From Rubrivivax sp. (GTDB taxonomy: Bacteria; Pseudomonadota; Gammaproteobacteria; Burkholderiales; Burkholderiaceae_C): a stretch of 45,456 nt of DNA. How positions within the stretch are numbered: position 1 is the stretch's first letter; every line of letters begins with the position of its first letter. The notes beneath the pieces were generated by a model. The model made no database searches, was not told where the DNA came from, and saw only the letters and a list, made by a program, of their open reading frames with translations. This document shows positions 21,493-33,995 of the stretch, piece after piece. Where the stretch lies: contig SEFA01000051.1 of assembly GCA_004210455.1 (NCBI GenBank), forward strand, positions 1-45,456, given 5' to 3'. A program made the translations under genes and the position numbers.

Positions 21493-21966
21493 TTATGGAA
21501 GCTCCGAGCCTCCCGCCCAGCGCGCGATTTCGGCTTCCAGGTGCGCGGCGCGTTCGCGCAGCAGGTCGGCGGTGGCCTTGAGCTGCAGGTGGGTGCGCAC
21601 GCGGGCGAGCAGGATGGGCGGGCTGATCGGCTTGGTGATGTAGTCGACCGCGCCGACCGACAGGCCGTGCGACTCATCCGCGGGATCCGAGCGCGCGGTC
21701 AGGAAGAGCACCGGGATGTCGCGCGTGGCCGCGTCCGCCTTGAGCCACCGGCAGAGCTCGTAGCCGTCCATGTTGGGCATCAGCACGTCCAGCAGGATGA
21801 GGTCGGGCGGCGGGGCCTCGGCGGCGATGCGCAGCGCGCGGTCGCCGGTGGTCGCCACCTTGACGCGGTGCCGCTCCTTGAGCAGCTCGTAGAGCTGCGA
21901 CAGGACCTCGGGGGAATCGTCCACGATCAGGATCGTGGGACGCGGGTCTCCGTTCGAGATGCTCAT
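21493..21966 (-). CDS. Stand-alone receiver-domain response regulator
   Basis: A 157-residue protein with one receiver (REC) domain: acidic pair DD (16-17), phospho-acceptor D60 in [10 protein letters not shown]90 in FLTA and K112 in YITKP. It ends with a short coil [20 protein letters not shown]. It aligns without gaps, offset by ten residues, to the first 160 residues of the REC-HD-GYP protein at 29134-30360, ending where that protein's HD-GYP domain would begin. It is therefore probably a duplicate that lost its output domain, now acting as a phosphate sink or a competitor for the kinases. Its ATG overlaps the stop of kinase C (ATGA). Confidence 0.9.
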
Positions 21967-24900
21967 GGCAGGGGTTCCTCCATCGATCGGAAGCCGTCCG
22001 GCGGCGCCACGCCGGCGGCCGCGTCATCTTCCAGTCCGCGGCGGGCGGTCTCGAAGTCGAATCGCGCGGCGGCTTCCAGGACCTCGCGCAGGGCGGCTGC
22101 GCGCCGTTCGTCGAGCCCGTGGCGCCCCCGGGCCAGCAGCGCCGTGAGTTGCTCGGCGGTGTCCACCGCCGCACCGTCGTGTTCGTCCAGCTGGCGCCGC
22201 AGGCGCGCCAGGCGCCCGTCCAGTTCGGCGATGCCCGCCGACGGCGACGGATCGTCCAGCGGGCCCGGCATCGTCGGCGGCGCGTCATCCGCCAGCGTCT
22301 CTCCCAACGCATGCAGCAGACGGTCCAGCGCCACGCGCACGGCCCGCGCCAGCTCCTGGCGCCGCGCCGCCGGGGCCTGCTCGCGGCAGGCGCTCTCCAG
22401 CGCGGCGGCGGCCGCGCTCAAAGGCAGCGCGCCGATGGTCGCGGAGGAGCCCCGCAGCGAATGCGCGAGGTACTCCAGCGCCTGCGCGTTGTCCGACGCG
22501 GCCGCCTGGGTGAGGCGGTTGCCGGTGTCCTGCTGGGTATGCAGGAAGATCCGCAGCAGGCGCAGGTACAGGCCGGCGTTGTTGGCGGCCGAGGCCAGGC
22601 CCGAGCGCGATTCCAGGCCGTCGACGACGGGCAGCGCCGGGGCGGCCGCGGGCCGGTGCCGGGAATTCCCGGCCGCGAGCTCGTCCTGCGGCGGGACCGC
22701 CGCGGGCGTGGCCGGATGCACCCAGCGCGACAGGACCTCGAACAGCGTGTCGACGTTCAGCGGCTTGGCAACGTGGTCGTTCATGCCGGTGGCCAGGATG
22801 CGCGCGCGGTCGGCGCCGGTGGCGTTGGCGGTCAGCGCGATCACGGGCAGTTCGCGCCAGCGCGGGTCCTGGCGCAGGCTCCGGGTGGCGTCGTAGCCGT
22901 CCATCACCGGCATCTGGCAGTCCATCAGCACGCCGTCGAAACCGTCGGGCGAGCGCTGCAGCAGGTCCAGCGCGATGGCACCGTTGCCCGCGATGGTCAC
23001 CGCGATGCCGGCCTTGGTCAGCAACTCCTCGGCGAGCTCCTGGTTGACCTGGTTGTCCTCCACGACGAGCAGGCGCGCGCCCGCCAGCGACTGCATCGAC
23101 GCCCGCGTCGCGGCGCGGCGCGCGTGCGCGTCGGGGACGGCGCCGGACGAGGCCGCGCCGCCCAGCGCGTCCCGCAGCGTCGCGGCCGTCACCGGCTTGG
23201 CCAGGACGGGCAGGGGCTGGCCGTCGGGCAGCGCCGAGGTCGACGCCATCGCCGTCATCGTCTCGTACAGCCCGTCGTCGTTGCCGAAGGCCGTCACCAT
23301 CACGATCCGGGGCATCGGCGAGGCTTCCTCGAACAGTCGGGACGCCGTGGCCAGCCCGTCCATCTCCGGCATCTTCCAGTCCATCAGCACCCAGTCGAAC
23401 GGACGGTGCTCGCGCGCCGCCGTCTGTACCGCCCGCAGCGCCCGCGGGCCGTCGGCGGCCTGCTCGACCTGCAGGCCCATCCCCTGGCAGAGCGCGGCCA
23501 GCACCTCGCGGGCGACGCGGTTGTCGTCCACGACCAGCGCCCGGCCGCGCAGCGCCGGCGGTGCCTCGTCCTCGTCCCCGCCCGCCGCCTCGTGCAACGG
23601 CGCCACCCCCAGCCGCGCCGTGAAATGCAGCGTCAGCCCCGCGCCGGGCATCGAGTCGACCCGCAGCACGCCGCCCATCATTTCCACCAGCATCCGGCAC
23701 ACGGCCAGCGCCAGGTCGCCGCGGTCGGGCGTGTCGGCGTCGGCCTGCGCCGGGCGCCGCACCAGCCGCGCCAGTTCCGGCGGCGACAGCGCCGGGCCGC
23801 TGTCGCGGATGCTGAACTGCAGGACGATGCCGTCCGCGCCCGCCGGCGCCACGTCGTCCCCCGCGGCGCCTGCTTCCGACACGTCCGACACCGCCACCAC
23901 GACCTCGTCCTGCTCGCTGCGGCGCGCGGCGTGCTTGCCGATATGGGCCAGCACCTGGCCGAGCCGGAAGGGATCGCCGACCAGCGTGCGCGGCAAGCCG
24001 GCGGGCACGCTGAGCAGCAGCTCCACGCCCTTTTCCTCCAGGCCCAGGCCGACCACCTGCACGAGGTGGGCGAGCACCTCGTCGAGTTCGAACGGGATGT
24101 GCTCCAGCGCGAGCCGGCCGGCCTCGATGCGGCTGAAGTCGAGGATGTCGTCGATGACGCCCAGCAGGGTTTCCGCGGCCCGGCAGGTCTTGTCCACGTA
24201 GTTGCGCTGGCGCGCGTCGAGCTCGGTCTGCAGCGCCAGCTCGGACATGCCGATGATGGCGTTCATCGGCGTTCGCAGCTCGTGGCTCATGTTGGCGAAG
24301 AAGTCGGCCTTGGCGCGGGTGGTGGACTCGGCGGACTCGCGGGCGGCGAGGATCTCGTTCTCGGCGGACAGGCGGTCCGTGAGGTCCATCAGCCAGACCA
24401 GCATCCCCGTGCGGCCGAAGTCCACCGGCAGGAAGGCTGCCACGCAGTCGCGGTGCGCGCCTTCGGGGTCGACGATGCTCAGCTCGACGTCGCCGGCGCT
24501 CCCGCCGCGGCCGCCGTCACCGTCGACGCTTCCGTCCAGCAGCGCCTGCGCCCGTCGGCGGCTCGCGTCGTCCGCGTAGGCGTCGTCGGGCCAGGGACGG
24601 CCGATCTCGACGGCCAGCAGCCGCCGCAGCGCCGGATTGGCGATGCTCACGAGGCCGTCCGAGATCAGTCCGATGCCGATGGGCGTGTGCTCGATCATGG
24701 CCATGAAGCGCTCGCCCTGGCGCAGCAGCGCCTGTTCCTGCGCGTGGCGGGCCGCGCGCAGCGTGAGGCTGCGCAGCAGCGCGGCGAGCCCGGCGAAGCA
24801 CAGCAGCGCCGACAGCAGGCCCACGCCCGCCCGGGCCGGCGCGCCGAACACGCCCGAGAGATCGGCGACGAAGACCATGCGCCACGGACCGGCGCTGTCG

Positions 24901-33300: not shown

Positions 33301-33995
33301 CCCTCGAGGATCATGCGCCAGTCGCGGCGGCTGGACGCGAGCACCACGCCGGAGGGCGAGATGAGCAACGCCCCGGCGTAGCTGCGGGTATCGAGGAAGT
33401 GGTCCAGCCCGTCGACGTAGACGCGGCCGACGACCGCGCCGACGATCTCGCTGTCCTTGCCCGGGAGGCGGTACACCGGCGCGGCGAGCCAGTAGACGGG
33501 CTGGCCGGTGCTGATGCTGATGCCGGCGTAGACGCTGGGCTGGCCGTTCATCGCCTGGCGGAAGTACTGGCGGAAGGCGACGTCCAGGCCGATCGGCGAC
33601 GCGCCTTCGTCGTCCCAGGCCGCGACGATGCGGCCGCGCGCATTGACGACGAAGACCTGCTGGGCGCCGACGCCGGTGGCGATCACCTCCAGCGTGTCGG
33701 CCGCGGGCCGGATGCTGCGCGCCGAGTCGACGTCGGTGATCGCCGCGGCGCGTTTGATCGCGGGGTCGAGCTGGCCGGCGAGCACGATCGCGCCCATGCC
33801 CTTGCCGGTCAGCGTGAGGCCCTGCAGCGACAGCGCCTCGCGCTGCGCCGCGTTGTTCAGGACGCGCCGGAAGTCGTACTCCAGCGAGTGCCGGTGCAGC
33901 TCGCTCGCGGCGACGCCCAGGGACAGCGCGGCCAGCGCGGCCAGGGGCCACGCGACGCGCCGATGCGCCAGGAGCCAGTCGGACACACGACCCAT
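30357..33995 (-). CDS. Hybrid sensor histidine kinase A (HK-REC-REC-HPt)
   Basis: A 1212-residue hybrid kinase and first gene of the operon: TM1 (about 15-31), periplasmic dCache-like sensor, TM2 (about 318-340), a coiled coil in place of the PAS region of kinases B and C, HisKA with H389 in NMSHEIRTP, and an intact ATPase domain ([35 protein letters not shown]). Then two receivers (LMDWQMP, LMDCQMP), a linker with four TSGG-type repeats, HPt with H1051 in LAHSLRG, and the helical C-terminal module. It is the only one of the three with every phosphorelay domain intact. The start at 33995 has GGGGAG just upstream. Signal unknown. Confidence 0.93.
31059..31106. repeat. 12-bp tandem repeat inside kinase A linker
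   Basis: Four 12-bp units (GCCGGAAGTGCC twice, then GCCGGAGGTGCC and GCCGGAGGTGTC) encode the TSGG repeats between the second receiver and the HPt. The unit keeps the frame, so slippage would change only linker length. Confidence 0.9.

What the first reader, a model, noticed from the sequence alone, without database searches (positions are those of the whole stretch)
21493..33995. Five-gene overlapping phosphorelay operon with three diverging hybrid kinases and a c-di-GMP output
Three hybrid kinases of the same overall design (dCache-like sensor, HK, REC-REC, with or without HPt) are interleaved with a REC-HD-GYP enzyme and a lone REC, all joined by 1-4 base overlaps. Copies differ in what they retain: A is complete, B has no HPt, C has no working ATPase, and the lone REC has no output domain. 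This reads as a duplicated sensor/output pair whose parts complement each other: B could phosphorylate via the HPt of C or A, and the lone REC could buffer flow to the HD-GYP enzyme. Seen: domains and overlaps. Inferred: the division of labour. An HtrA protease follows 31 bases later and may belong.
Basis: partly seen in the sequence, partly recalled or inferred. Interest (0 to 1): 0.8.

Follow-up and report, generated by a model that had tools for sequence, protein, structure and literature searches.

The report
Two-module kinase operon with pseudokinase cassette
This five-gene signalling operon is two units joined end to end: an ordinary sensor kinase with a probable c-di-GMP-degrading enzyme, and a separately occurring three-gene cassette in which one kinase has lost its relay domain, its partner has lost its ATPase, and a small receiver protein follows.

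Summary
In detail: A, REC-HD-GYP, B, C and a lone REC overlap by 4, 1, 4 and 4 bases; A is complete, B lacks HPt, C has lost its N and G2 boxes. Comparison changes the reading. A + REC-HD-GYP stands without B-C-REC beside it in 5 genus genomes read. B and the lone REC occur in 4 of 16 genus genomes: beside A in three, and in the fourth, with C, between two genes that are neighbours in the 15 others. So the operon is two modules. In all 4 sets B lacks HPt, and C keeps H-box, receivers and HPt but not its ATPase boxes; C's dead ATPase is under purifying selection. The lone REC's alpha-1 helix left that of REC-HD-GYP (36% identity) but is 93% kept among lone RECs. Best reading (0.5): B-C-REC is a split phosphorelay, B kinase to C's HPt to lone REC, like LadS to GacS. 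Main rival: C is a RetS-like modulator of A; C's DHp is nearer A's (80%) than B's (67%). No biochemistry was testable.

The parts
30357..33995 (-). Kinase A: dCache-type sensor, HisKA, HATPase_c, REC, REC, HPt, C-terminal tail domain; complete unorthodox hybrid kinase
   Evidence: ORF; Pfam; model of sensor; boxes intact
30696..30941 (-). HPt of A (residues 1019-1100)
   Evidence: Pfam Hpt 37.2 bits
29134..30360 (-). REC-HD-GYP protein (predicted c-di-GMP phosphodiesterase); HD-GYP at about 29296-29829
   Evidence: Pfam PF00072 92 bits, PF13487 109 bits; best solved relative 4r8z, cyclic di-GMP phosphodiesterase, E 2.8e-57
25760..29134 (-). Kinase B: sensor, linker (weak PAS match), HisKA, HATPase_c, REC, REC, no HPt, C-terminal tail domain kept
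   Evidence: no HPt in 4 of 4 orthologues
21963..25763 (-). Kinase C: sensor, linker, HisKA with intact HELRTP, degenerate HATPase, REC, REC, HPt, tail; predicted pseudokinase
   Evidence: 4 of 4 orthologues lack N-box and G2 box
24117..24314 (-). HisKA (DHp) of C, His and HExxT kept
   Evidence: Pfam 78.9 bits; dN/dS 0.09-0.34
23613..23978 (-). Degenerate ATPase domain of C: N-box replaced, G2 box changed and three residues shorter, fold predicted to be kept
   Evidence: AlphaFold2 of the DHp-ATPase piece mean pLDDT 86.5; dN/dS 0.20-0.49
22308..22562 (-). HPt of C (residues 1068-1152), AHSLRG here, AHGLRG in G014
   Evidence: Pfam Hpt 45.0 bits; His kept in 4 of 4 orthologues
21493..21966 (-). 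Lone REC with about 25 residues of the linker helix of REC-HD-GYP, no output domain
   Evidence: strongly conserved (99, 95 and 89% in three pairs; dN/dS 0.05-0.14)
20397..21461 (-). HtrA/DegP-like protease, 31 bases after the lone REC; judged a neighbour, not a part
   Evidence: position in relatives

Best explanation
The operon joins two modules. Module 1 (A + REC-HD-GYP) is a self-sufficient phosphorelay: A senses a periplasmic small molecule through a dCache domain, autophosphorylates, passes the phosphoryl group through its receiver and HPt to REC-HD-GYP, and so sets c-di-GMP breakdown. Module 2 (B + C + lone REC) is a split phosphorelay made by duplication and complementary loss. B is the kinase but has no HPt. 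C has lost the ATP-binding boxes but supplies the HPt. The phosphoryl group goes from B (His, then receiver) to the HPt of C and on to the lone REC, with C's own sensor gating the HPt step or acting on B through its conserved DHp domain. Shown by sequence: domains, losses, their conservation, the two locations and the purifying selection. Inferred: every phosphotransfer step, the loss of C's kinase activity, the partner choice and what the lone REC binds.
For: B lacks HPt and C lacks the N-box and G2 box in 4 of 4 species. The lone REC (87% identity or more) is in 4 of 16 genus genomes, the next matches being 54-68% and in longer frames. B (59% or more over nearly its whole length) is in the same 4 of 16, and C is in the same 4 among the matches listed for 60 relatives (capped list). 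In G014 the three stand as a block, with a 4-base B/C overlap, between a PHP-domain gene and a YciO-like gene; in 15 of 15 other genus genomes those two genes are 19-157 bases apart. A + REC-HD-GYP without B-C-REC beside it stands in G002, G004, G006, G014 and G015. C's dead ATPase evolves at dN/dS 0.20-0.49, A's live one at 0.29-0.34, C's DHp at 0.09-0.34. Lone REC alpha-1: 93% among lone RECs, 36% to genus REC-HD-GYP; beta5-alpha5 92%. HPts of A and C are 42% alike within a genome, though 81% and 71% between genomes within A and within C. Precedents: LadS H1, D1 to the HPt of GacS to GacA (PMC4866733, abstract); CheA3/CheA4 split kinase (PMC3591291, passages).
Against: C's DHp is more like A's (80%) than B's (67%), which does not favour B as C's special partner. 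A is present in all 4 genomes that have B and C, so the cassette has not been seen without A in the same genome. Only 4 species carry it, 3 of them close. B + C as sisters has 94 SH-aLRT, under the tool's star of 95, in a quick tree without bootstrap. In G014 C and REC do not overlap (about 20 bases apart). The beta5-alpha5 identity of 92% is no more than REC-HD-GYP proteins share in general (88-97%), so it says nothing special about dimers. No phosphotransfer, binding or expression was tested.
Confidence: 0.5

Rival explanations
1. C is a RetS-like modulator of A: its conserved DHp and pseudo-ATPase bind A, block or dephosphorylate it, and its receivers and HPt drain phosphoryl groups to the lone REC as a sink; B feeds A or C like LadS. 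The output of all three is c-di-GMP through the HD-GYP enzyme.
For: C's lesion matches what is reported for RetS: degenerate HATPase without G-boxes, H-box with HExxT kept (PMC5992135, passages). Foldseek of the C DHp-ATPase model: first GacS 7z8n (E 1.6e-21), then RetS 6dk7, RetS-GacS DHp complex 7n0e, and DivL 4q20 at rank 18. C's DHp is 80% identical to A's. All 4 genomes with C have A.
Against: C has a conserved HPt (dN/dS 0.23-0.52), and the RetS mechanisms read work through its core and a receiver. The lone REC's alpha-1 no longer resembles that of REC-HD-GYP. In G014 C is unlinked from A. The PDB ranking may only reflect the class: BarA is the best NCBIfam match of A, B and C alike, and A and B were not folded for comparison.
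Confidence: 0.28
2. Two independent ordinary pathways that merely share a transcript in three species: A to REC-HD-GYP, and B and C as separate inputs that each use other cellular partners.
For: The modules occur apart in G014, and possible partners are many in the genome: 123 matches to A in G000 at E up to 0.001, receivers and separate pieces of one protein counted apart.
Against: C without its ATPase boxes is unlikely to be an independent kinase input, and B without HPt needs one from elsewhere; the two lesions are complementary and found together in 4 of 4.
Confidence: 0.15
3. C and the lone REC are decaying leftovers of duplication without function.
For: C has lost catalytic boxes; the lone REC looks like a truncated REC-HD-GYP.
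Against: Open frames in 4 of 4 species, dN/dS 0.09-0.69 over the domains of C and 0.05-0.14 in the lone REC, phosphorylation sites intact in 4 of 4.
Confidence: 0.05

Closest known systems
GacS / LadS / RetS multikinase network of Pseudomonas aeruginosa (PMC4866733 abstract; PMC5992135 passages)
   Same: One complete kinase with HPt (A), one hybrid kinase without HPt (B), one with a degenerate ATPase but intact HExxT (C); C's DHp-ATPase model is closest to GacS and RetS structures.
   Different: All three are paralogues in one operon, C keeps an HPt, and the neighbouring outputs are an HD-GYP enzyme and a lone REC, not GacA.
CckA / DivL / DivK / ChpT of alphaproteobacteria (PMC9430884, passages)
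   Same: Pseudo-kinase plus single-domain regulator plus a hybrid kinase that works with an HPt on another protein.
   Different: C keeps the His (DivL has Tyr there, recalled) and carries the HPt itself; no CtrA-like output was seen in the operon.
RpfC / RpfG (recalled; PMC5391125 seen only in a search listing)
   Same: Hybrid kinase with HPt next to a REC-HD-GYP protein, as in A + REC-HD-GYP.
   Different: dCache sensor instead of the RpfC membrane sensor (recalled), two receivers in A.
CheA3/CheA4 split kinase of Rhodobacter sphaeroides (PMC3591291, passages)
   Same: Kinase functions divided between two proteins.
   Different: There the two proteins together form the histidine kinase; here the missing part of B is the HPt and C keeps a degenerate ATPase domain.
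PhyK / MrrA of Caulobacter (PMC5964349, passages)
   Same: A kinase-like protein without kinase function used as a phosphotransferase, together with a single-domain regulator.
   Different: HWE/HisKA2 kinases, other topology.

Membership tests
GacS/LadS/RetS-type network | Complete unorthodox kinase with HPt | tested here: met
   A: HisKA, HATPase_c, 2 REC, Hpt over Pfam cut-offs
GacS/LadS/RetS-type network | Hybrid kinase without HPt and with a live-looking ATPase (LadS-like) | tested here: met
   B: no Hpt, boxes intact in 4 of 4; activity not tested
GacS/LadS/RetS-type network | RetS-like kinase: ATPase without G-boxes, HExxT kept | tested here: met
   C in 4 of 4: G2 lost, G1 changed (DSGPAL/DSGPSL/DSGPGM), HELRT kept
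GacS/LadS/RetS-type network | RetS architecture ends with two receivers, no HPt (recalled; the passages read name only the core and receivers) | tested here: not met
   C has an Hpt, 45 bits
GacS/LadS/RetS-type network | BarA/GacS by curated NCBIfam cut-off | tested here: not met
   A scores 448.9 against a cut-off of 890 for BarA
GacS/LadS/RetS-type network | Inter-kinase phosphotransfer or heterodimer | not testable with these tools
   no complex prediction or assay
REC-HD-GYP phosphodiesterase (RpfG-like) | REC plus HD-GYP domain with HD and GYP motifs | tested here: met
   Pfam; HDIGK and GSGYP in 8 of 8 orthologues
REC-HD-GYP phosphodiesterase (RpfG-like) | Full set of metal ligands | tested here: inconclusive
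   the HHE triplet of 4r8z is HQE in 8 of 8 orthologues
REC-HD-GYP phosphodiesterase (RpfG-like) | c-di-GMP hydrolysis | not testable with these tools
   none
CckA/DivL/DivK | Tyr instead of His in the pseudo-kinase (recalled) | tested here: not met
   HELRTP in C, 4 of 4
Split histidine kinase | HisKA protein without usable ATPase beside a partner kinase | tested here: inconclusive
   C stands beside B in 4 of 4 and its ATPase boxes are lost, but the domain is present and its inactivity was not measured

The most novel reading that the evidence does not exclude
B-C-REC is a transferable three-gene cassette, a hybrid kinase split by complementary degeneration after duplication: neither half can signal alone, so two periplasmic sensors are forced to act together (an AND or gating logic) on one dedicated receiver, and the cassette can be placed next to a c-di-GMP module to add that logic.
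Probability: 0.35. Interest if true: 0.7.

Novelty: new variant of a known kind. Interest (0 to 1): 0.5.

Why it matters
Multikinase networks such as GacS/LadS/RetS are hard to reconstruct. Here three comparable roles sit in one gene cluster as paralogues, with natural genomes that carry module 1 alone or both modules apart. That makes the question of how pseudokinases and HPt-less kinases become locked to each other testable with a small set of purified domains and deletions.

Tried and rejected
Rejected: B and C imported from a far family (they are one clade with A). Rejected: C as decay. Rejected: HtrA as a module member. Rejected after a look: L035 as a second pseudokinase of this kind, since one search shows N-box-like and G2-box sequences that my strict pattern missed. 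In one search, of 150 H-box frames in 145 loci (many duplicates), 11 lacked both patterns: seven are C or copies of its record, one is L035, and three (L114, L042, L068, without receivers) were not followed.

The promoter scan found no sigma-70-like site and one terminator-like site on the other strand, below the shuffle mean of 2.5. The eight paper searches listed no paper whose title or abstract start describes this cassette; the library is open-access only and I did not read the listed papers through.

Caveats: the HPt row holds meaningless values wherever B enters, and only A and C values were used. dN/dS is a simple counting method with domain limits I set by hand; in one pair (G008) the REC of the HD-GYP protein is as constrained (0.10) as the lone REC (0.13). 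In one search the 13 rows from family loci include one of the genus (L135, of G004) and one gene twice (L133, L143).
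Full report
What is there. Pfam agrees with the domain reading, with a HATPase score in C of 37 bits against 90 in A and 88 in B. The sensor of A was modelled from 9 sequences with mean pLDDT 91.3; its nearest solved structures are DctB sensors (3e4o, 3e4p, 3by9) and then amino-acid chemoreceptors, so it is a dCache domain and a small carboxylate or amino acid is the likely kind of ligand (inference). 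The sensors of B and C were not folded; they are 38-39% identical to A's.

Relatives. All 16 genomes held for the genus, own included, were searched with REC-HD-GYP, the lone REC and B, and 60 genomes, these 16 among them, with C (capped list). I read 15 stretches around the best matches. A-HD-GYP-B-C-REC stands complete in G000, G005 and G008. A-HD-GYP stands without B-C-REC beside it in G002, G004, G006, G015 and G014. In G010 and G013 the contig ends inside A. The other six genus genomes (G001, G003, G007, G009, G011, G012) were not read at this place. The lone REC is in 4 of 16 (G000, G005, G008, G014; 87-100% identity); the other 16 matches in the genus are 54-68% identical and in longer frames. 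B is in the same 4 (59-100%); the next matches to B are A and C. In 299 family genomes, in which G005, G008 and G014 do not appear, the best match to the lone REC other than itself is 66% identical; the 13 family loci that I opened hold REC-HD-GYP proteins.

Two modules. In G014 B, C and lone REC lie on another contig, between a PHP-domain gene and a YciO-like gene, with the 4-base B/C overlap kept (the names of these two flanking genes are recalled from their sequence, no family search was run). In 15 of 15 other genus genomes the PHP and YciO-like genes are 19-157 bases apart. B-C-REC is therefore a discrete three-gene unit found at two sites, and A + REC-HD-GYP is a separate unit. Whether the unit moved, or was present in an ancestor and lost, was not settled.

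Complementary losses. Across the 4 species B has no HPt (4 of 4) but intact H, N and G boxes and receivers. C has HELRTP, both receiver aspartates and the HPt histidine (4 of 4), while its N-box is replaced and its G2 box is changed and three residues shorter (4 of 4). The model of C's DHp and ATPase piece keeps the kinase fold (mean pLDDT 86.5, 34 sequences). Per-domain counts give dN/dS of 0.20-0.49 for C's dead ATPase, 0.29-0.34 for A's live one, 0.09-0.34 for C's DHp, up to 0.69 in C's linker, and 0.05-0.14 for the lone REC. C thus looks like a maintained pseudokinase. The tree of the kinase-receiver core puts A, B and C of the genus in one clade (SH-aLRT 100), B and C each at 100, and B + C as sisters at 94 (not starred), in a quick tree of 61 rows, 57 different: 16 from the locus, all 25 candidates from the genome search stretches, and the best 20 of 92 from genome contigs.

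Lone REC. It looks like a REC-HD-GYP copy cut after about 25 residues of linker helix. Region by region, alpha-1 is 93% identical among lone RECs, 36% between lone REC and genus REC-HD-GYP, and 72% between genus and family REC-HD-GYP; beta5-alpha5 is 92%, within the 88-97% seen among REC-HD-GYP proteins; the linker is 67% against 77%. Alpha-1 is the helix by which receivers choose their phosphodonor (recalled). This looks like insulation from the HD-GYP branch and speaks against a simple shared sink, without excluding one. A heterodimer of the two is possible and untested.

Mechanism. The anatomy favours transfer from B through C's HPt to the lone REC, with LadS to GacS as the proven precedent (PMC4866733, abstract). 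Against it, C's DHp is 80% like A's and 67% like B's, which suits a RetS-like hold of C on A; RetS also has a degenerate ATPase without G-boxes and keeps HExxT (PMC5992135, passages), and the C model's best solved relatives are GacS, RetS and the RetS-GacS complex, though A and B, which are closest to the same class, were not folded as a control. Both may be true at once. I give the split relay 0.5 and the RetS-like reading 0.28.

Wider setting. In six loci examined (L039, L054, L057, L058, L064, L076) the same sensor family appears: in L039 fused to a hybrid kinase with HPt, in the other five on a kinase-less protein that overlaps the gene of a hybrid kinase with HPt, with a REC-HD-GYP gene in the same locus (next to the kinase in L057, L058 and L064, about 4 and 6 kb on in L054 and L076). 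Pfam, run on four of those five sensor proteins, finds GAF in all four, PAS in three and PocR in one. So the A + REC-HD-GYP pair is akin to an arrangement found in several groups, and fusing the sensor to the kinase is a likely step in the history of A (inference). The first module is ordinary; the interest lies in the second.

Literature. Passages were read of PMC5992135, PMC12189002, PMC3591291, PMC5964349 and PMC9430884, and the abstract and section list of PMC4866733; everything else about named systems is recalled. The eight searches listed nothing that, by title and abstract start, describes this cassette; the library holds open-access papers only.

Noticed in passing
window 29134-30360; orthologues: The HD-GYP enzyme has HQE where 4r8z has HHE in the motif before WDGSGYP, in 8 of 8 orthologues; this may change metal binding.
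   Followed up: partly
L057 9986-16670; L058 5757-13503; L064 5550-13534; L054 5121-12361 and 16300-17460; L076 4632-12370 and 18086-19240: The same dCache-type sensor occurs on separate kinase-less proteins (GAF, PAS or PocR domains where Pfam was run) whose genes overlap that of a hybrid kinase, with a REC-HD-GYP gene in the same locus.
   Followed up: partly
kinase A, residues about 350-370; alignment: A in G000, G002, G004, G005, G006 and G008 (and the partial A of G010 and G013) lacks a segment of about 110 residues between sensor and kinase that A of G014 and G015, and all four B and four C, carry.
   Followed up: no
tails of A, B, C after the HPt position: A small conserved domain of about 65 residues follows the HPt in A and C and is kept in B without HPt; no Pfam match.
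   Followed up: no
G001, G003, G009, G011, G012: These genus genomes have a REC-HD-GYP protein 70-74% identical but no A-type kinase among the listed matches; its partner kinase there was not looked up.
   Followed up: no
window 34188-39765, + strand: Three overlapping plus-strand genes lie beside this locus and are found beside A in the relatives read; they look like a ligase-associated exonuclease, a DNA ligase and a helicase (recalled, not searched).
   Followed up: no
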